Origin: Nitrospirota bacterium
GTDB lineage: Bacteria; Nitrospirota; 9FT-COMBO-42-15; HDB-SIOI813
Direction: 5' to 3'
DNA length: 32,086 nt
Assembly: GCA_020846775.1 (NCBI GenBank)
Contig: JADLDG010000047.1
Location: forward strand, 1 to 32,086
The translations under genes and the position numbers were made by a program. The notes beneath the pieces are model-generated. The model searched no databases. It worked only from the letters and a program-made list of their open reading frames with translations, and had not been told where the DNA came from. Positions 1-32,086 of this stretch are shown here, piece by piece (the stretch's first letter is position 1; each line of letters opens with the position of its first letter).

Positions 1-827
1 GCGGCAACATCAAGGTCGAATATATCTACCTCTCCGATCGGCCGTTGGTGAAGATCGACATCGGGAGCACCTCTGAAGAACCTTACTATTATCACACCGA
101 CCACCTGGGGACGCCGCTGTTTATGACGGACAGCACGGGGCAAAAGGTCTGGAGCGCGGAGTTGTTGCCTTTTGGAGAAGGGTATGATATCAACGAAGAT
201 GTGGACGGCGACCAGGTGAATATCGTGAACAACCTGAGATCCCCAGGACAGTATTATGACGCGGAGACGGGGTTGCATTATAATATGGCGAGGGATTATC
301 ATCCTCAAGTCGGAAGGTATACTCAGTCCGATCCGATTGGCTTGGCGGGAGGGATCAATACATTTGTGTATGCTGGAGGTAACCCTGTCTACTGGAAAGA
401 TCCCTCAGGACTATTATGGATTTATGAACAATCAACTGGAAACTTGTATCACCAACCGGATACGCGAGGGGGAGTACCACCGGAGTTGGTTGGAACAGGA
501 TATGCTGGACACAAGGAAGGATTAAATAATCCAAATTATCAAAACGTGCGGGGTACTGGGCCTAGCTCTAATGCAGGACCATTGCCGCAGGGAAATTACA
601 TAATTGGTCCACAGAAAGATAATGAAATAGAGCTTGGCAAGGTATTACCGGGTTCCATGAGAATGATACCTGATCCAAACAATAAAATGTTTGGTCGGTA
701 CGGATTTCTTATTCATGGCGGTAATATGAAAAACAAAACTTCGTCGCAGGGTTGCATCGTTATGTCTCCAAGTGTTCGGGACAAGATAGGGAGAAGTGGC
801 GATACAAATTTGACGGTGATTCCATGA
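1..827 (+). CDS. Rhs/YD-repeat protein, C-terminal part, with Tlde1-like (DUF2778) toxin domain; 5' end outside window
   Basis: The reading frame is open from the left edge (first whole codon at base 3), so this is the 3' end of a much longer gene. Residues are numbered from the TTG at base 45, an internal codon. Residues 14-123 are the hallmark Rhs core: YHTDHLGTP, then LRSPGQYYDAETGLHYN, RYTQSDPIGL and the terminal DPSGL. The ~137 residues after DPSGL are a separate C-terminal domain. It contains GPLPQGNYIIGP, MFGRYGFLIHGG and SSQGCIVM, the pattern of the Tlde1/DUF2778 family of L,D-transpeptidase-like effectors. His224 and Cys237 are the expected catalytic pair. Family knowledge: Tlde1 acts in the periplasm on peptidoglycan stem peptides. 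The DNA is GC-rich up to about base 410 and clearly more AT-rich after it, as expected for an exchanged toxin tip. The stop overlaps the next gene (ATGA). The Rhs call is very sure; the toxin family is likely. Confidence 0.9.
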   Translation, partial: GNIKVEYIYLSDRPLVKIDIGSTSEEPYYYHTDHLGTPLFMTDSTGQKVWSAELLPFGEGYDINEDVDGDQVNIVNNLRSPGQYYDAETGLHYNMARDYHPQVGRYTQSDPIGLAGGINTFVYAGGNPVYWKDPSGLLWIYEQSTGNLYHQPDTRGGVPPELVGTGYAGHKEGLNNPNYQNVRGTGPSSNAGPLPQGNYIIGPQKDNEIELGKVLPGSMRMIPDPNNKMFGRYGFLIHGGNMKNKTSSQGCIVMSPSVRDKIGRSGDTNLTVIP

Positions 828-1327
828 GGCATCATTCAGTTGTGTTTATGTGGTTAGCTGCTTTTGTTCTGTTATCGATTGTAATTTCAAATAACGTTCA
901 GGGACAAACTAAAATAACAGAATCTGGGAGTACCTCTATCAGTGCGTCATCAAAGAAGGTAAAAGTGAATGTGACCATTAATACGGTTCGGATTGATGAC
1001 GTTGAAAAACTCCCGTGGGTTTGGCCTATTGATCATAAAACTCTAACTGTTATTCGGAATCTGGACATTTCAATCAATGGCCGAGTTCTATTTGTCCCAC
1101 GTTCAGTTTTTGTTGATTTGATAGATCCTGCGGAAGCCTCTATTCGATTTATAGAAGGAGATACAGCTGTTCTTACGATTAATGGAGGTGATGGCGCGAA
1201 TTCTTACTTTGTACGTGTGTACTTCGACTCAAGAAAAGTTAAGAGAAAAATGCTCTATGATACGTTATTCCCTAAGGAACCAATGCAAGATACACAATAC
1301 TGGATTCGTGTACTGAAAGACCAGTAA
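824..1327 (+). CDS. secreted hypothetical protein, probable immunity protein to the Rhs toxin
   Basis: A 167-residue protein whose ATG overlaps the TGA of the Rhs gene by 4 bp, so the two are translationally coupled. An in-frame codon farther upstream (752) lies inside the toxin domain and is an unlikely start. The N-terminus (MRHHSVVFMWLAAFVLLSIV, followed by a VQG-Q junction) is a typical Sec signal peptide, predicting a periplasmic mature protein of about 140 residues rich in short polar and hydrophobic alternations, probably beta. I recognise no named family. Position immediately downstream of a polymorphic toxin tip is where the cognate immunity gene normally sits. A periplasmic location fits a toxin that would act on peptidoglycan. 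The immunity role is inference from context; the gene itself is well supported. Confidence 0.82.
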   Translation: MRHHSVVFMWLAAFVLLSIVISNNVQGQTKITESGSTSISASSKKVKVNVTINTVRIDDVEKLPWVWPIDHKTLTVIRNLDISINGRVLFVPRSVFVDLIDPAEASIRFIEGDTAVLTINGGDGANSYFVRVYFDSRKVKRKMLYDTLFPKEPMQDTQYWIRVLKDQ

Positions 1328-1428: not shown

Positions 1429-1671
1429 TCATCTATGAAGCTTATAATGAGCAAAGTCGGCGTAGATTCTCCGGTCGCGAGTCTCGTTGGCATGGGCCAG
1501 GGTGTTTCGGGAGACCTTTCCCCTGATACCCATGTGATAGAGTTTGGTTTTTGCTACGCGCAGGCATGCCTCGATGTCCCTGAGGCTTTCTCGGTAAGTC
1601 AGTTGAGCAAAGGTCATGCAGAGGAACTGATCCCAGCAAGAAAACACTCCGCCAGGAGTTGACAACTGCAC
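1429..1671 (-). pseudogene. IS4-family transposase remnant (DUF4372 N-terminal region)
   Basis: Minus-strand frame of 80 codons containing FSCWDQFLCMTFAQLTYRES, then SLRDIEACL, KLYHMGIRG, VSRNTLAHANETRDRRIYADFA. This is the conserved N-terminal segment of the IS4-type transposases that begin with a DUF4372 domain. The frame stops right after the FAHYKLHR region, where a full protein would continue for about 300 more residues including the DDE catalytic core, and the usual first ~25 residues are missing. It is therefore a decayed fragment, not a functional insertion sequence. I could not find terminal inverted repeats. It separates the Rhs/immunity pair from the thiamine operon. Bases 1328-1428 hold no gene I recognise. 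Confidence 0.72.
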
Positions 1672-1688: not shown

Positions 1689-1707
1689 ATTTTATACTTT
1701 AATATAT

Positions 1708-1887
1708 TTCTACTGGGGGAGCCTTGAGAAGGCTGAGAGTCTCTTATCCTGTACATGTGCAAACAAGCTAATGGTTAGTTGGTAATAGTTGTTGATCAAT
1801 TAATCAATGGTTTGATTCTGTGGAATAGAGTAGACAGAGATGACCCTTTGAACCTGAGCTGGATAATGCCAGCGTAGGGAAGTAGAA
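1708..1887 (+). promoter_or_regulatory. TPP riboswitch (THI element)
   Basis: The conserved halves are present: a GGGGGAGCC...GGCTGAGAG segment near 1715-1740 and the diagnostic ACCCTTTGAACCTGA followed by TGGATAATGCCAGCGTAGGGA near 1843-1880. P1 is visible as TTCTACT (1708-1714) pairing perfectly with AGTAGAA (1881-1887). The P3 arm is long, occupying roughly 1745-1835. It senses thiamine pyrophosphate and controls the thiS-thiG-thiE genes that follow. The class is certain; exact ends are from the P1 pairing. Confidence 0.95.
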
Positions 1888-1894
1888 TGATGGA

Positions 1895-1927
1895 GCCGTA
1901 CTTCCCTGCTCGTGAGGTACGGCTTTT
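1895..1927 (+). terminator. riboswitch-controlled intrinsic terminator
   Basis: GCCGTAC (1895-1901) pairs with GTACGGC (1917-1923) and is followed by TTTTCTGTTATTT. A competing pairing exists: AGGGAAGTA (1876-1884) is a perfect complement of TACTTCCCT (1899-1907), which uses both the 3' strand of riboswitch P1 and the 5' strand of the terminator. Ligand-bound P1 should therefore permit termination, and the free RNA should form the antiterminator. Confidence 0.8.
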
Positions 1928-3663: not shown

Positions 3664-5400
3664 ATGTCTGAGTCAAAGAAAAGCTATAGAGTATCCTCTT
3701 CAAAAAAATCCCCGGACATGCCTGCAGCTGCCAAAGTTGCTGAATACGAGCAGGAGATAGAAAACCTCTGTACTCATATAAGAAACCTTGAGGATGAGAT
3801 TCAACGCTTAACGGAGTCAAGATACCGGCTGGACCAGGCCTTCAAGCATAATGAAAAACTTACATCTGCCCTGAAAGAGGCGAAAGAGCAGATACAGGTG
3901 CTCAGAGAAGAGGTGGAGAAGTTGACATCTCCTCCTGCAAGCTTTGGTGTCTTTTCCGAGCTGAATGAAGACAGTACTTTAACAGTATATGTTTCGGGCA
4001 GAAAGATGAAGGTTAATGCCCGTCCTGGAATTGATGTAAAGGTCATTCGCAAGGGGCAGGAGGTTGTTCTTAATGAGGCCCTGAATGTAATAGAAATACG
4101 TGGTTTCGATGGACAAGGTGAGGTAGTTCACCTGAAAGACAGGCTGGCAGAAGACAGGGCCGTTATTACACTTCATGGTGATGAGGAAAGGGTTTCAGAA
4201 ATTGCCGGACATCTGCGGGAAGAAAAGTTAAGCGTAGGAGATGTCCTTCTGTTTGACAGCCGCTCCGGTCTGCTGCTGGAGAAGCTTCCAAAGTCTGAGG
4301 TCGAAGAGGTTTGTCTGGAGGAGGTACCTGATGTCGCTTATTCAGACATAGGTGGTTTAAAGAAACAGATCGAAATTATTATGGATGCAATAGAGCTCCC
4401 TCTGATACATCCTGAATTGTTTAAAGAGTACAGACTACTTCCACCAAAAGGGGTCCTCCTTTACGGGCCTCCCGGATGTGGAAAGACATTGATTGCAAAG
4501 GCTGTTGCAAACTCTATCGCAAGGAGAATGGAGTCTAAGGGAGGAAAGGATGTAAGGAGTTACTTCCTGCATGTCAAGGGGCCGGAGTTGTTGAATAAAT
4601 ATGTCGGTGAGAGTGAACGGCAGATCCGGGAAGTCTTCAATAAGGCGAAAGATAAGGCAGAAGAGGGCATGCCGGTGGTGGTCTTCTTTGACGAAATGGA
4701 TGCCCTTTTCAGGACACGCGGAACAGGTATATCATCTGATGTTGAATCCACTATTGTCCCGCAGTTCCTGTCGGAGATAGATGGTGTTGAGAGTCTGAGA
4801 AATGTAATAGTTATTGGAGCAAGCAACAGGCAGGACCTTATTGACCCTGCGATATTGAGGCCGGGGAGGCTTGATATAAAAATCAGGATTGATCGTCCTG
4901 ACAGGGATGCTTCGGTAGATATATTTAAAAAGTATCTTACCAGTGATCTTCCTATTCATAAATCTGAACTCGAAAAGGACAATGGAGATTCCAATAAGGT
5001 TGTTGAGAGGTTGATCAATATTACGGTTGACCGCATGTTCAGCCTTGATGAAGAAAATAAGTTTCTTGAAGTTACATATGCAAATGGGGAAAAAGAGGTC
5101 CTCTATTTTAAAGATTTTGCAAGCGGCGCTATGATAGAGGGTGTTGTTGCAAGAAGTAAGAAATATGCGATAAAGCGCCTGCTGACTGAAGGCGAAGGCG
5201 GCATAAAGGGGGAGGATATACTTACAGCTATACAGGATGAATTTAAAGAGAATGAGGATCTGCCGAATACGACTAATCCTGATGACTGGGCAAAGATTGC
5301 CGGCAGAAAGAATGAGCGGATTATTAATGTCAGGACTATCAGCGGAAAGACTAAAGAGACGAGACGGATTGAAACAGTGCAGACGGGACATTATTTATAA
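3664..5400 (+). CDS. mpa: proteasome-activating AAA+ ATPase (Mpa/ARC)
   Basis: A 578-residue protein, normal for Mpa/ARC, the hexameric ATPase that recognises pupylated proteins, unfolds them and feeds them to the 20S core. Residues ~23-80 are a long heptad-rich coiled coil, the known Pup-binding element. Next comes the OB-fold region (about 95-225, including [12 protein letters not shown] and [17 protein letters not shown]). The AAA domain starts at YSDIGGL, with Walker A GPPGCGKT at 268-275 and Walker [10 protein letters not shown] around 339-347, then the second region of homology with [17 protein letters not shown]. The protein ends HYL, matching the Tyr-containing C-terminus of mycobacterial Mpa that docks on the core particle. 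Ribosome site AAAGGAGAG precedes the ATG. First gene of the pup-proteasome locus. Confidence 0.97.
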
Positions 5401-5409
5401 TGATTAGGA

Positions 5410-5485
5410 AAATCTCCCCTTACCCCCCTTTTCTAAAGGGGGGGTGTTATTCCTCCCTTTTGTAAAGGGAGGTCAGGAGGGATTT
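5410..5485 (+). repeat. intergenic double-hairpin repeat between mpa and dop
   Basis: Two adjacent hairpins with 9-bp stems: CCCCCCTTT/AAAGGGGGG (5423-5443) and CCTCCCTTT/AAAGGGAGG (5452-5472). They are flanked by an imperfect outer repeat of the type AAATCTCCCCT...AGGAGGGATTT. The layout is that of a small non-autonomous element inserted between cotranscribed genes. Similar CCTCCC/GGGAGG hairpins occur at 18090 and 23269. Confidence 0.7.
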
Positions 5486-5511
5486 ACAAGCAGGATCCAG
5501 GAAATATTTAT

Positions 5512-6996
5512 ATGTCAACAAAATTACTGACAGGAACAGAAACAGAATTCGGTCTTACTTCAAGAAAACCGGAAAGTTTTGACCCGGTAACAGGCTCTCT
5601 GTTTCTTATTAATCATCTGAGGCCATTTTCATCTCTGAGGATCTTATGGGACTATGAGAATGAAGACCCGCTTGTAGATGCAAGGGGTTTTGTGGTGGAT
5701 GGTGAGAAAGAGAAACCGTCGCAGGAAGATAACTTCAGTCTCAATAAGCCGCTTGAGAACGGGGGAAGGCTGTATGTTGATGGCGCTCACCCTGAATATT
5801 CAACACCGGAGTGTACCAATCCAAGAGACATCGTGGTCTATGAAAAGGCTGGTGAGTTGTTAGTCCAGATCTGTCTTGAGAACGCCAACAGGGTAAGAAA
5901 AGAAGATGACCCTCTTTATGTATACAAAAATAATACTGACGGCAAAGGGAACAGTTACGGTTATCACGAAAACTATTTAATGAAGCGGTCAACACCCTTT
6001 GAAAAGATTGTTCAGGGCCTTACTCCATTTCTTGTAACAAGGCAAATCTATGCAGGAGCCGGTAAGGTGGGAACAGATAACAGGTCTAATCCTGCGGAAT
6101 ATCAGATCTCCCAGAGGGCAGACTTCTTTGAGACGTTGATTGATCTCAATACTATGGCAAAACGTCCCATTATTAATACCCGTGATGAGCCGCATGCAGA
6201 CTCAAAGTTGTTCCGCAGATTACATGTAATTGTTGGTGATGCCAACATGTCGGAGTATTCTACCTATCTTAAGGTTGGGCCTGCGGCACTTGTCCTGCAG
6301 ATGATAGACAATAATCATGAGATTACCGGTTTAGACCTTGCAAATCCATTAGAGGCAATTAAGGCGATATCGCGGGATCTGACACTTAAGAAGACTGTTA
6401 AGCTGGCCAATGGGAAAGAATTTACTGCTGTTGAGATACAGAAGGCATATTTAGATGAAGCATACAAATATTTCGCTAAGATGGAACGGGATCCAATTGT
6501 TGACGAGATCCTTTCATATTGGTCTGACACACTGGAAAAACTGGGGAAAGACCCATTTGAACTTCATACCCATCTTGATTGGTTGATAAAATACGAGTTG
6601 TTGAATAATTATGCTCAAAAAAAGGGATTTGGCTGGGACAATCCGAGGCTTGCCATGATGGATCTTCAGTATCATGATATACGGCCGGATAAGGGACTTT
6701 ATTACACACTTTTAAGAGACGGATATGTTACACCCCTGGCCTCAGAAGGCTCTATCCTTATAGCTAAGGATACACCGCCGCGGGATACACGTGCATTTTT
6801 CAGGGGAACATGTATAAAAAAGTTTCCAAAAGATGTTTATGCAGCCAGCTGGACATCGGTCCTGTTTGATATAGGCAACTCTACTATTAAGAGGGTGCCG
6901 TTGGTCAACCCGCTAAGGGGTTCTGAGGACCTTGTGGGTAAAATTGTAAGTGAGTCTGAAACAGCAGAGGAGCTATTGCGAAATCTTGCTGGATAA
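5512..6996 (+). CDS. dop: depupylase/Pup deamidase Dop
   Basis: A 494-residue member of the Dop/PafA carboxylate-amine ligase fold. Dop removes Pup from substrates and, where Pup ends in Gln, deamidates it. It is assigned as Dop rather than PafA by the N-terminal TGTETEFG (E10 and E12 bind Mg-ATP) and by the retained Dop loop, WDYENEDPLVDARGF near residues 46-60, which the second paralogue lacks. LYVDGAHPEYSTPE follows, with Asp90 as the expected catalytic aspartate. Further shared blocks are YKNNTDGKGNSYGYHENYL, RQIYAGAGKVG, INTRDEPHAD and RLHVIVGDANMSEYSTYLKVG. Upstream AGGAAAT is the ribosome site. It precedes pup by 12 bp, the actinobacterial gene order. Confidence 0.96.
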   Translation: MSTKLLTGTETEFGLTSRKPESFDPVTGSLFLINHLRPFSSLRILWDYENEDPLVDARGFVVDGEKEKPSQEDNFSLNKPLENGGRLYVDGAHPEYSTPECTNPRDIVVYEKAGELLVQICLENANRVRKEDDPLYVYKNNTDGKGNSYGYHENYLMKRSTPFEKIVQGLTPFLVTRQIYAGAGKVGTDNRSNPAEYQISQRADFFETLIDLNTMAKRPIINTRDEPHADSKLFRRLHVIVGDANMSEYSTYLKVGPAALVLQMIDNNHEITGLDLANPLEAIKAISRDLTLKKTVKLANGKEFTAVEIQKAYLDEAYKYFAKMERDPIVDEILSYWSDTLEKLGKDPFELHTHLDWLIKYELLNNYAQKKGFGWDNPRLAMMDLQYHDIRPDKGLYYTLLRDGYVTPLASEGSILIAKDTPPRDTRAFFRGTCIKKFPKDVYAASWTSVLFDIGNSTIKRVPLVNPLRGSEDLVGKIVSESETAEELLRNLAG

Positions 6997-7008
6997 GGAG
7001 GAGGAATC

Positions 7009-7203
7009 ATGAGTTCTCAGGACAGGGAGAGAAAAAAATCTAAAGAGAAGACAGAGAAGGTAGAAGAGGCCAAACCTGAAGTCGTAGAAAAAGGTAAGAA
7101 GATAAAAGAAGATATAGATGATCTGTTGGATAAGATAGATGACGTACTTGAGGAGAATGCCGAAGAATTTGTGAAAAACTATGTACAAAAGGGGGGAGAA
7201 TGA
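7009..7203 (+). CDS. pup: prokaryotic ubiquitin-like protein Pup, ending GGE
   Basis: A 64-residue, highly charged protein, the expected size and composition for the disordered modifier Pup. The C-terminal half DDLLDKIDDVLEENAEEFV followed by KNYVQKGGE is nearly the actinobacterial Pup pattern: the helix that binds the Mpa coiled coil, then the GGE tail. Because it ends in Glu rather than Gln, PafA can ligate it without prior deamidation; Dop would be needed only for depupylation. The strong site AAGGAGGAGG lies ahead of the ATG. Its TGA overlaps the prcB ATG by 4 bp, so modifier and protease subunit are coupled. The C-terminus does not resemble UBact, the related modifier of other phyla. Confidence 0.96.
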   Translation: MSSQDRERKKSKEKTEKVEEAKPEVVEKGKKIKEDIDDLLDKIDDVLEENAEEFVKNYVQKGGE

Positions 7204-8006
7204 AAGCATGGTCTTCCAGTTTCTATGACATGCTACTTACAGAGTATCCGAATTTACTTCCGCAGTTTAAGACAGAGAACCTTACGCGTAATGCAGAAGA
7301 AAGAGGTCACTTGACAAATATACCTCATGGAACTACTGTCCTTGCCCTGAAATATAAAGATGGTGTAATAATTGCCGGGGACAGGATGGCCACAGAGGGG
7401 TATCAGGTCTCTGCACGCCGTATTGAAAAGGTCTACAGATGTGATGATTATTCTGCCATAGCAATTTCCGGCGCTGCCGGAGTTTGCATTGAGATTGCAA
7501 GACTCCTTCAGGTAGAGCTTGAGCACTATGAGAAGATTGAGGGTGTAGAGCTTACGATTGAGGGAAAGGCAAATAAACTGTCACAGATGATAAAGGGAAA
7601 CCTGCCGCTTGCCATGCAGGGTCTGGTAGTCATCCCGATATTTGCCGGCTATGACCTCAAGAAGGAAGAAGGACGCATCTATAAGTATGATATTACCGGC
7701 GGCAAGTATGAAGAGATAGACTATCATTCAACAGGTTCAGGCGGCAAGGATGCGAGGAATACACTTAAAAAATTATATTCACCTGATATGCCTGAGGATA
7801 AGGCTGTTCTGACGGCCTTAGAGGCATTATATGATGCGGCTGAGGAAGATATTGGCACGGGCGGTCCTGACATGGTAAGGGGAATATTCCCTATCGTTAA
7901 GGTTATAAATAAAGGCGGTATTACTGATATTGAGCAGGCTCAGATAGAAGCGTCGTACAGGCAGCTGATAAACAGCAGGCGTAAGGCGATAACAAAGGAG
8001 AAATAA
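7200..8006 (+). CDS. prcB: 20S proteasome beta subunit PrcB
   Basis: A 268-residue N-terminal-nucleophile hydrolase, the catalytic subunit of the bacterial 20S core. Residues 1-44 form the propeptide, ending in HG; autocleavage at G44/T45 exposes the catalytic threonine of the TTV start. Mature numbering places Asp17 in AGDRMATEG and Lys33 in RRIEKVY exactly where the family has its charge relay (Asp61 and Lys77 in the precursor). SGSGGKDA and the GTGGPD segment near the C-terminus are also typical. It overlaps pup at the start and lies 3 bp ahead of prcA, so the core subunits should be made together. Confidence 0.97.
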   Translation: MKAWSSSFYDMLLTEYPNLLPQFKTENLTRNAEERGHLTNIPHGTTVLALKYKDGVIIAGDRMATEGYQVSARRIEKVYRCDDYSAIAISGAAGVCIEIARLLQVELEHYEKIEGVELTIEGKANKLSQMIKGNLPLAMQGLVVIPIFAGYDLKKEEGRIYKYDITGGKYEEIDYHSTGSGGKDARNTLKKLYSPDMPEDKAVLTALEALYDAAEEDIGTGGPDMVRGIFPIVKVINKGGITDIEQAQIEASYRQLINSRRKAITKEK

Positions 8007-8009
8007 AGC

Positions 8010-8690
8010 ATGCCACTTCCTTATTACGTATCACCTGAACAGATGATGCAGGACAAGGCTGAATATGCCCAGAAGGGGATAGCCAAAGGGAGGTCTATAA
8101 TATTATTAGATTATCAGGACGGTATATTCTTTTTTGCAGATAACCCCAGCGCTTCATTAAATAAGGTTTCTGAGATTTATGATCGCATTGCCTTTGCAGG
8201 TGCGGGGAAATACAGTGAATTTGAGAACCTGAGAAAGGCCGGTATCCGTCATGCGGATGTAAAGGGTTTTTCATACAGCCGTGATGATGTGACGGCAAAG
8301 TCCCTTGCCAATGCATATTCCCAGACACTCGGCACTATCTTCAGTCAGGAGATCAAACCTCTTGAGGTGGAGATACTTGTAGCTGAAGTTCATGACTCAC
8401 CGGATGCCAATGAGATCTACAGGATAATGTATGATGGGAGCATTTGTGATGAAAAGGGCTATACTGTAATAGGAGGAAGGGCAGAAGCAGTCAAGATCTA
8501 CTTAAAGGAAAAATTCAGTATGGGTCTATCACTTAAGGATGCATTAAAACTTTCTACAGATGCACTGGAGACAACTATAAATCAAAAGCTTGATTTGGAG
8601 AACCTTGAAGTAGCCGTCCTTGACAGGAGCAGGAACGGACGCAAATTCAGGAGAATCAGGATGGAGGAGTTGCAGGTGCTAATTGAATAG
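8010..8690 (+). CDS. prcA: 20S proteasome alpha subunit PrcA
   Basis: A 226-residue alpha subunit that forms the outer gating rings of the core particle and docks the ATPase. The N-terminus MPLPYYVSPEQMMQDKAEYA is the gate region, followed by KGIAKGRSIILLDYQDGIFF and IYDRIAFAGAGKYSEFENLR, standard for bacterial PrcA. It has no propeptide or catalytic threonine, as expected. AAAGGAG lies upstream. Full length for the family (about 230-250). The stop is followed directly by a palindromic repeat that separates it from pafA. Confidence 0.95.
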   Translation: MPLPYYVSPEQMMQDKAEYAQKGIAKGRSIILLDYQDGIFFFADNPSASLNKVSEIYDRIAFAGAGKYSEFENLRKAGIRHADVKGFSYSRDDVTAKSLANAYSQTLGTIFSQEIKPLEVEILVAEVHDSPDANEIYRIMYDGSICDEKGYTVIGGRAEAVKIYLKEKFSMGLSLKDALKLSTDALETTINQKLDLENLEVAVLDRSRNGRKFRRIRMEELQVLIE

Positions 8691-8764
8691 AATAAATAGG
8701 GACAGCGCCTATTTATTTTCAGGTACTGTCAGAGCTGAATAAACAGGCGCTGTCCCTATTTATT
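8691..8764 (+). repeat. REPIN-like inverted repeat between prcA and pafA
   Basis: The 27-bp left arm (8691-8717, AATAAATAGGGACAGCGCCT then ATTTATT) is the inverse of 8738-8764 with one mismatch, around a 20-nt loop. It begins at the base after the prcA stop and ends 12 bp before the pafA ATG. The AAATAGGGACAGCG core recurs at 10141 and as a half-copy at 15142. REP-type elements of this design are mobilised by RAYT transposases in other genomes; none is present here. Confidence 0.8.
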
Positions 8765-8776
8765 CAGAGGGCGATC

Positions 8777-10144
8777 ATGCATAACAGAATTTACGGCCTT
8801 GAAAACGAATATGGACTGATCTATTCATCGAGAGATAAGAACACCATCCCTCTTGAGAGAATTTTGGGCTATCTGTTTGAGGGGATCATATCAAACAGCT
8901 GGTCTTCAAATGCATTTCTCACAAATGGCGCAAGATTTTATCAGGATACAGGATGTCATCCGGAATATGCCACCCCCGAATGTGGTAATGTTGTTGACCT
9001 TGTAATTTATGACAAGGCTGGTGAGAGGATAATTGAGACATCCCTCAAAATAGCCGAGAGCAGGATGCTGGAAGATGGAATTGCCGGTGATATTTTTATA
9101 TATAAAAACAATACTGATTCAGCAGGCAATACCTACGGGTGTCACGAAAATTATCTTATTGCAAGACACGTAGACTTCTGGAGGTTTTCGGAACGCCTGA
9201 TACCATTCTTTGTAACGCGTCAGATCTATACAGGTGCAGGAAAGGTGATGAAAGAGGCTGGCAGGACCTATTTCTCCATCTCACAAAGGGCTGCTCACAT
9301 CAATCAGAAGATATCATGCTCCACGACCTCCTCAAGGAGTATTATAAATACCCGTGATGAACCTCATGCAGATGCCGAGCGCTATCGCCGGCTGCACGTA
9401 ATTGTTGGCGATGCGAATATGTCTGAGTATACCACTTACCTTAAGGTTGGGACTACGGCCCTTCTGCTTGAGATGATTGAAGATGGAAATCCTGTGAGAG
9501 GGTTGGACCTTGATGACCCTGTACGTGCCATAAAGGATATTTCAAGGGATCTTACCCTGAAGAAGAGCGTAAGACTGGAGAACGGCAGGTCACTTACGGC
9601 AATTGAGATTCAGAAGACCTACTTTGAGCTGGTCCAAAATTATTTTGCACACAAGGAAAAAGATTTAATGGTGCAGGACATCCTGGAGAAATGGGAGTAT
9701 GTACTGGATAAATTACAGGATAACCCGGCTGCGTTGTCAAGGGAGATAGACTGGGTTACAAAACATGAATTATTAAATGAGTACAGAAAGAAGAAGGGGT
9801 GTGATTGGGATGATCCCAGGATTTCCATGATGGACCTTCAGTATCATGATCTTAAAAGGGATAGGGGACTTTATTATCTCCTTGATAAGGAAGGTTTAGT
9901 CGAGAAGATTGTTGATGAGAAGGATATAGAACATGCCATAGATTATCCGCCTCAGAACACCCGGGCTAAGCTGAGAGGGGATTTTATAAGAATTGCAAAT
10001 ATGAAGAACCGCTCATACAGCGTTGACTGGACATATCTCAAACTGGACGGTTACGGTGAGGAGACAGTCCTATGCATGGACCCGTTTGCATCACATGACA
10101 GGCGCATAGAAAAGATGTTGTCTTACATTTTTTCCGGTAGATAA
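8777..10144 (+). CDS. pafA: Pup-protein ligase PafA
   Basis: A 455-residue carboxylate-amine ligase that couples the C-terminal Glu of Pup to substrate lysines using ATP. It is a paralogue of the upstream dop. It is called PafA because it lacks the Dop loop, starts MHNRIYGLENEYGL, has FLTNGARFYQDTGCHPEYATPE with Asp57 at the catalytic position, and matches the usual PafA length (about 452). It shares YKNNTDSAGNTYGCHENYL, RQIYTGAGKV, INTRDEPHAD and VIVGDANMSEYTTYLKVG with Dop. It follows prcA after a REPIN-like repeat and ends inside a second one, converging on lolD. Confidence 0.96.
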   Translation: MHNRIYGLENEYGLIYSSRDKNTIPLERILGYLFEGIISNSWSSNAFLTNGARFYQDTGCHPEYATPECGNVVDLVIYDKAGERIIETSLKIAESRMLEDGIAGDIFIYKNNTDSAGNTYGCHENYLIARHVDFWRFSERLIPFFVTRQIYTGAGKVMKEAGRTYFSISQRAAHINQKISCSTTSSRSIINTRDEPHADAERYRRLHVIVGDANMSEYTTYLKVGTTALLLEMIEDGNPVRGLDLDDPVRAIKDISRDLTLKKSVRLENGRSLTAIEIQKTYFELVQNYFAHKEKDLMVQDILEKWEYVLDKLQDNPAALSREIDWVTKHELLNEYRKKKGCDWDDPRISMMDLQYHDLKRDRGLYYLLDKEGLVEKIVDEKDIEHAIDYPPQNTRAKLRGDFIRIANMKNRSYSVDWTYLKLDGYGEETVLCMDPFASHDRRIEKMLSYIFSGR

Positions 10145-27498: not shown

Positions 27499-27664
27499 CT
27501 ACCTTCAGAGAGAGAAGGCTTGAAAGGAATACAAAAAAGACCGACTAATAAAGGGACAATATCTGCTTTCATAAGTTTTTCGAAAGCATTATCAGCTGCA
27601 GACAGGAGTTATCAGCCGTCTCAGGCGGTTATAAGGTGAACCCCATCACCTTTAGTAAATTTAG

Positions 27665-31761: not shown

Positions 31762-32086
31762 TATTTGGAGAGTTTGATTCTGGCTCAGAACGAACGCTGG
31801 CGGCGTGCTTAACACATGCAAGTCGTACGAGAAAAGGGTAGCAATACCCCCAGTAAAGTGGCGCACGGGTGAGTAATGCATGGGTAACCTGCCTTGAAGA
31901 CCAGAATAACCCCCCGAAAGGGGAGCTAATACTGGATGAGAAAGGGGGGACGATAGTCATTCCCTTTTAAAGGATCCCCGCAAGGGGTAATCGCTTCAAG
32001 ATGGGCTCATGTCCCATTAGCTTGTTGGCAGGGTAATGGCCTACCAAGGCAATGATGGGTAGCCGGTCTGAGAGGATGGCCGGCCA
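31762..32086 (+). rRNA. 16S ribosomal RNA, 5' part (truncated by window end)
   Basis: Begins about 7 nt before AGAGTTTGATTCTGGCTCAG, the universal 27F site, followed by GAACGCTGGCGGCGTGCTTA and ACACATGCAAGTCG. Further conserved marks are GGCGCACGGGTGAGTAA and, at the right edge, GGTCTGAGAGGATGGCCGGC. About 325 nt of roughly 1,540 are present. The 5' end is set by counting back to E. coli position 1. Confidence 0.97.

What the first reader, a model, noticed from the sequence alone, without database searches (positions are those of the whole stretch)
410..1327. Tlde1-like toxin tip on an Rhs protein, coupled to a signal-peptide-bearing immunity candidate
Seen: after the Rhs DPSGL boundary the protein carries FGRYGFLIHGG and SSQGCI, with His224 and Cys237, and the next ORF starts within its stop codon and has a clear signal peptide. 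Known: Tlde1/DUF2778 enzymes act on peptidoglycan in the periplasm, and their immunity proteins are periplasmic. Inferred: this is a toxin-immunity pair with a possibly undescribed immunity family.
Basis: partly seen in the sequence, partly recalled or inferred. Interest (0 to 1): 0.7.

Follow-up and report, generated by a model that had tools for sequence, protein, structure and literature searches.

The report
Rhs wall-toxin tip with immunity gene
An environmental bacterium carries the end of a large Rhs protein that is predicted to attack rival cell walls, followed directly by a gene for an exported protein that most likely protects the producer; the toxin type is known, but the protector belongs to a small family that is absent from the family databases searched.

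Summary
The Rhs tail matches PF10908 (Tlde1 domain) at 40.8 bits (cut-off 30.1), carries the His/Cys pair, and models as an L,D-transpeptidase fold. The next gene (824-1327, 167 aa) starts inside the toxin's stop codon (ATGA) and has a signal-peptide-like N-terminus. Relatives of the 167-aa protein were found in the window's own phylum, in Acidobacteria and in the phylum of a Syntrophaceae genome. Of eight clear members, seven sit directly behind a Tlde1 tip; the eighth is an orphan between heme-synthesis genes. A ninth, weak relative has no toxin beside it. No Pfam or NCBIfam family, solved structure or fold match describes the protein. Other Tlde1 tips in the phylum are followed by unrelated proteins that also look exported or membrane-bound. 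So this is a toxin-immunity pair of a known kind with an apparently undescribed, mostly beta immunity family. Tox-LD-peptidase tips on RHS proteins were catalogued in 2012 with other immunity families (Imm16, Imm57), so the architecture is not new. The contig starts inside the rhs gene, so the delivery end is unseen; the genome holds a type VI secretion sheath gene in a likely type VI cluster. Inhibition of the toxin by the protein is inferred, not shown.

The parts
3..413 (+). C-terminal end of the Rhs shell (core domain), cut by the contig start; DPSGL boundary at 399-413
   Evidence: TIGR03696 82 bits, PF03527 49.8 bits, both over cut-off; contig C47 begins at window base 1
414..827 (+). 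Tlde1-type toxin tip; PF10908 match at 495-770, stop codon TGA 825-827
   Evidence: PF10908 40.8 bits, cut-off 30.1; L,D-transpeptidase fold in the model
714..716 (+).
   Evidence: Invariant in 13 aligned tips
753..755 (+).
   Evidence: Invariant in 13 aligned tips
824..1327 (+). Candidate immunity protein, 167 aa; ATG overlaps the toxin stop (ATGA)
   Evidence: Eight-member family, seven directly behind a Tlde1 tip; no Pfam or NCBIfam match
824..904 (+). Signal-peptide-like N-terminus of the immunity candidate (possible cleavage after residue 27, VQG|QTK)
   Evidence: Hydropathy heuristic; helix 3-21 in the model

Best explanation
The end of an Rhs polymorphic toxin carries a Tlde1-type domain of the L,D-transpeptidase fold that attacks peptidoglycan stem peptides in the periplasm of a neighbouring cell. 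The translationally coupled 167-aa protein is exported to the producer's own periplasm and protects it and its sisters, most likely by binding the enzyme and blocking its active site. Shown here: domain match and fold, catalytic residues, gene overlap, recurrent pairing, and an export-signal-like N-terminus. Inferred: enzymatic activity, delivery (type VI secretion, or Sec export as one relative suggests), export of the partner, and inhibition by direct binding.
For: PF10908 over its curated cut-off; tip profile finds Tlde1a 7uo8 at E 0.001; L,D-transpeptidase entries fill the top 50 PDB matches of the tip model. Seven of eight family members lie directly behind a Tlde1 tip, six with the same ATGA overlap. 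All eight have a hydrophobic N-terminus. Other tips of the phylum are followed by unrelated proteins with a hydrophobic N-terminus, as expected of exchangeable periplasmic or membrane-bound immunity. A VipB/TssC gene lies in the genome, in a run of ORFs that reads as a type VI cluster.
Against: No activity, export or binding was tested. One member (L045) has no toxin, and one weak relative (L055, 22.8 bits) lies beside a membrane protein without a toxin. The delivery end of this Rhs protein is not in the assembly. The His just before GC of Tlde1a is Gln here, so details of catalysis may differ.
Confidence: 0.82

Rival explanations
1. The tip is a displaced, no longer delivered toxin cassette, and the 167-aa gene is kept as an orphan immunity gene against neighbours that still deliver such a toxin.
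For: No other Rhs core and no RHS repeat was found in the rest of the 99.6% complete assembly. Related tips are displaced (L005 behind a Y1 transposase part, L004 without an Rhs core in its ORF), truncated (L003) or gone (L045), while the immunity gene is intact. A transposase remnant lies just downstream in the window.
Against: The window's tip and Rhs core are in one open frame up to the contig edge, and an assembly break inside a repetitive rhs gene would look the same. The acidobacterial relative L047 also has Rhs core plus tip in one frame that runs off its contig.
Confidence: 0.25
2. The 167-aa protein is not an immunity protein but a helper of the toxin, such as an exported chaperone or co-enzyme.
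For: The pairing alone would also fit an obligate helper; the overlap shows coupling, not the sense of the effect.
Against: Tips up to 48% identical to the window's have unrelated partners (L010), and L045 keeps the gene without a toxin. A helper would be expected to stay with its toxin and to be lost with it.
Confidence: 0.08
3. The tail is a housekeeping-type L,D-transpeptidase domain that remodels the producer's own wall, not a toxin.
For: The fold is shared with housekeeping L,D-transpeptidases, and YkuD matches weakly, below its cut-off (16.5 bits).
Against: The curated match is to PF10908, the position after the Rhs boundary is the toxin slot, and annotated plasmid relatives lie beside the type VI tube gene tssD in Pantoea.
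Confidence: 0.05

Closest known systems
Tlde1/Tldi1 effector-immunity pair (Salmonella; PMC9638812)
   Same: Same Pfam domain over cut-off, catalytic His and Cys, L,D-transpeptidase fold; the Salmonella immunity protein also has a Sec signal by that paper
   Different: Here the domain is the tip of an Rhs protein, the immunity gene is downstream rather than upstream (upstream in Salmonella by PMC10434147), and the His just before GC is Gln. The Salmonella immunity protein was not compared.
Tox-LD-peptidase tips on RHS proteins with Imm16 or Imm57 (PMC3482391)
   Same: L,D-peptidase tip on an RHS protein with an adjacent immunity gene
   Different: The immunity protein matches no Pfam family and models as mostly beta, whereas Imm57 is described as mostly alpha; Imm16 is DUF2750
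Tlde1 genes on Pantoea and Paraburkholderia plasmids (L048-L050)
   Same: Tips 38-44% identical to the window's, each overlapped by a following gene with a hydrophobic N-terminus
   Different: Stand-alone genes, beside tssD in Pantoea; their partners do not match the immunity profile

Membership tests
PF10908 Tlde1 domain family | Profile match over the curated cut-off | tested here: met
   40.8 bits against 30.1
PF10908 Tlde1 domain family | Catalytic His and Cys in H...[ST]xGC | tested here: met
   H and C invariant in 13 tips, SSQGCI in the window
PF10908 Tlde1 domain family | L,D-transpeptidase fold | tested here: met
   Top 50 PDB matches are of this fold, best E 4.5e-4, TM-score about 0.5; model pLDDT 71.8
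Tlde1a-type subgroup (Salmonella) | His before GC in the motif (S/T)HGC (PMC9638812) | tested here: not met
   Gln here, and the position varies in the 13 tips; so it is filed under the domain family, not as a Tlde1a
PF10908 Tlde1 domain family | L,D-carboxypeptidase or transpeptidase activity and toxicity | not testable with these tools
   Needs an assay
Rhs polymorphic toxins | Rhs core before a variable C-terminal domain | tested here: met
   TIGR03696 82 bits against 32.5; tip follows DPSGL
Rhs polymorphic toxins | N-terminal delivery part and full repeat shell | tested here: inconclusive
   Contig starts inside the gene; no RHS repeat elsewhere in the assembly
Imm16 / Imm57 | Profile match in Pfam | tested here: not met
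   None of the eight members matches a Pfam immunity family at E up to 1
Imm57 | Mostly alpha (PMC3482391) | tested here: not met
   Model mostly strands after an N-terminal helix (moderate confidence)
Tldi1 | Sequence similarity to the Salmonella immunity protein | not tested
   That protein was not fetched; partners of plasmid Tlde1 genes show no similarity

The most novel reading that the evidence does not exclude
The 167-aa protein founds an undescribed family of exported, mostly beta proteins that inhibit L,D-transpeptidase-fold enzymes, possibly with a fold not yet seen in solved structures, and that moves between phyla and is also kept as an orphan.
Probability: 0.55. Interest if true: 0.5.

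Novelty: new member of a known kind. Interest (0 to 1): 0.42.

Why it matters
L,D-transpeptidases make cross-links that escape many beta-lactams (own knowledge), and dedicated protein inhibitors of this fold would be useful to know. This family gives a small set of testable candidates with their presumed targets. It also points to predicted wall-attacking Rhs tips in a phylum where they are little described in the papers searched: strong Tlde1 matches occurred in 9 of 396 sampled genomes, with several unrelated partner types.

Tried and rejected
A scan of genome contigs with P0002 alone found nothing; one with a three-member alignment found three loci. Plasmids held no relative of P0002. The weak Pfam match of P0002 to bCoV_NSP1 (12.7 bits, cut-off 25) and the Foldseek matches to spike and viral proteins (no E below 0.001, low TM-scores) are taken as chance. 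L057 (18.4 bits, in a ribosomal operon) was rejected as a family member, and L055 (22.8 bits) was set apart as doubtful. The tree of 17 tips is too poorly resolved to say whether tips with this immunity type form one group. PF10908 matches below the cut-off, at 21-27 bits in many genomes, were not counted as tips. Likening the partners of L013, L016 and L051 to Imm57 is a resemblance only: no Pfam match for any of the three. The alignment of tips was too divergent for a viral-contig scan.

Full report
What is there. The window is contig C47 of an assembly of 2.7 Mb in 136 contigs, 99.6% complete. It starts inside an rhs gene. Frame 3-827 encodes the end of the Rhs shell (TIGR03696, 82 bits), the boundary DPSGL (399-413) and a tail of 137 residues that matches PF10908 (Tlde1 domain) at 40.8 bits against a curated cut-off of 30.1. 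The family search over the whole genome finds this one place only. The second ORF, 824-1327, begins with an ATG inside the ATGA overlap and has a signal-peptide-like start.

The toxin tip. Aligned with 12 other tips from the same phylum, an acidobacterium and proteobacterial plasmids, the tip shares 14 invariant columns, among them the His, the Cys and the S, G and I around the Cys. The profile of these tips finds Tlde1a in the PDB (E 0.001) and an L,D-transpeptidase. A model made from three sequences (pLDDT 71.8, pTM 0.72) has L,D-transpeptidase-fold entries throughout its top 50 PDB matches (best E 4.5e-4, TM-scores about 0.5). Tlde1a trims tetrapeptides and exchanges D-amino acids, and its motif has a His just before GC (PMC9638812). 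Here that position is Gln, and it varies among the aligned tips, so details of the activity may differ.

The immunity candidate. P0002 alone found three relatives in 396 genomes of the phylum: L003, L004 and L005. An alignment search of genome contigs added L045 (Syntrophaceae) and L047 (Acidobacteria); its third locus, L046, is the same place as L003. Profile searches of 396 and 395 genomes in the phyla of L047 and L045 added L054 and L056. A repeat in the own phylum with the eight-member profile found the same four genomes and no more. Every member was read in context. The window, L003, L004, L005, L047, L054 and L056 follow a Tlde1 tip directly. Six share the ATGA overlap; in L054 the ATG follows one base after the stop. 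L056 lies at a contig end, so only the last 55 residues of its tip are seen. The tips of L003, L054 and L056 were read by eye from the frames for their HG...SxGCI motif; L003's place also matches PF10908 below the cut-off (21.3 bits, one stop inside). L045 is an orphan: the hemC-like ORF ends 35 bases upstream, and the locus holds no tip motif. The closest relative of P0002 is the acidobacterial one (41-43% identity), which suggests transfer between phyla.

Pfam and NCBIfam hold no family that matches the eight members beyond chance, and the PDB none by sequence. The model from four sequences is mostly strands after an N-terminal helix (pLDDT 73.2, pTM 0.68) and has no PDB or viral match at E below 0.001. 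With a model of this quality a new fold is possible, not shown.

Other tips in the phylum. Ten places in nine sampled genomes exceed the PF10908 cut-off. Where it is not this family, the gene behind the tip encodes a Sel1-repeat protein (L009), a HEAT-repeat protein with a membrane-spanning start (L011, L038), an exported-looking protein (L013, L016) or an unrelated 174-aa protein (L010), each with a hydrophobic N-terminus. None matches the P0002 family profile. In L015 the tip runs on in one frame into a membrane protein. The tip of L010 is 48% identical to the window's but has an unrelated partner, so partners are exchanged. That is usual for immunity genes and hard to explain for a fixed helper.

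A series of decay. The window and L047 have an Rhs core plus tip. L005 has the tip behind a Y1 transposase part, and L004 has a tip after a glycine-rich stretch without an Rhs core in its ORF. L003 has a tip fragment only, and L045 the immunity gene only. In each case the immunity gene is intact. Orphan immunity genes are a known idea: PMC10539506 speaks of them for Rhs effectors in its abstract.

Delivery. The genome has a VipB/TssC gene over cut-off, in a run of ORFs that reads as a type VI cluster (only VipB was tested by profile). In one relative, G239, a 1175-aa Rhs protein with the same kind of tip starts with a hydrophobic, signal-like stretch, so Sec export is an alternative. The window's own delivery end is not in the assembly, so a displaced cassette is not excluded.

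Place among known things. Tox-LD-peptidase tips on RHS proteins with Imm16 or Imm57 were listed in 2012 (PMC3482391), and Tlde1/Tldi1 is characterised in Salmonella. The kind is therefore known; what appears undescribed is this immunity family. The paper library holds open-access papers only, so a description elsewhere could have been missed, and the 2020 paper that defined Tlde1 was not read here.

Noticed in passing
window 1429-1671 (-): Remnant of a transposase N-terminus (DUF4372, 72.4 bits) just downstream of the immunity gene, with no longer ORF on that strand.
   Followed up: partly
window 1705-1897 (+) and 27596-27659 (-): A TPP riboswitch ahead of thiamine genes, and a fluoride riboswitch next to a tRNA; the contig ends inside a 16S rRNA gene that starts at 31762.
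   Followed up: no
window 3664-10144: ORFs that read as a bacterial proteasome cluster: an AAA ATPase like Mpa/ARC, two Dop/PafA-like ligase ORFs (5512-6996 and 8777-10144) and beta and alpha subunits between them (by eye).
   Followed up: no
L045:6001-6516: Orphan member of the immunity family between a hemC-like and a cobA-hemD-like ORF in a Syntrophaceae genome, without any toxin motif in the locus.
   Followed up: partly
L015 (G131:C30), minus strand: A Tlde1 tip that runs on in one frame into a protein with several membrane-spanning stretches: a possible toxin-immunity fusion, or a frameshift.
   Followed up: no
L041:3857-4735 (same tip as L010): A 292-aa ORF with a signal-like start, only a short Rhs core stub and a Tlde1 tip: a possible Sec-exported mini-Rhs toxin.
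   Followed up: no
L055, minus strand, 216-aa ORF: Distant relative of the immunity family's core (VPxSxY...GGDGAGSY) beside a membrane protein and no toxin; it may show an older, wider family.
   Followed up: partly
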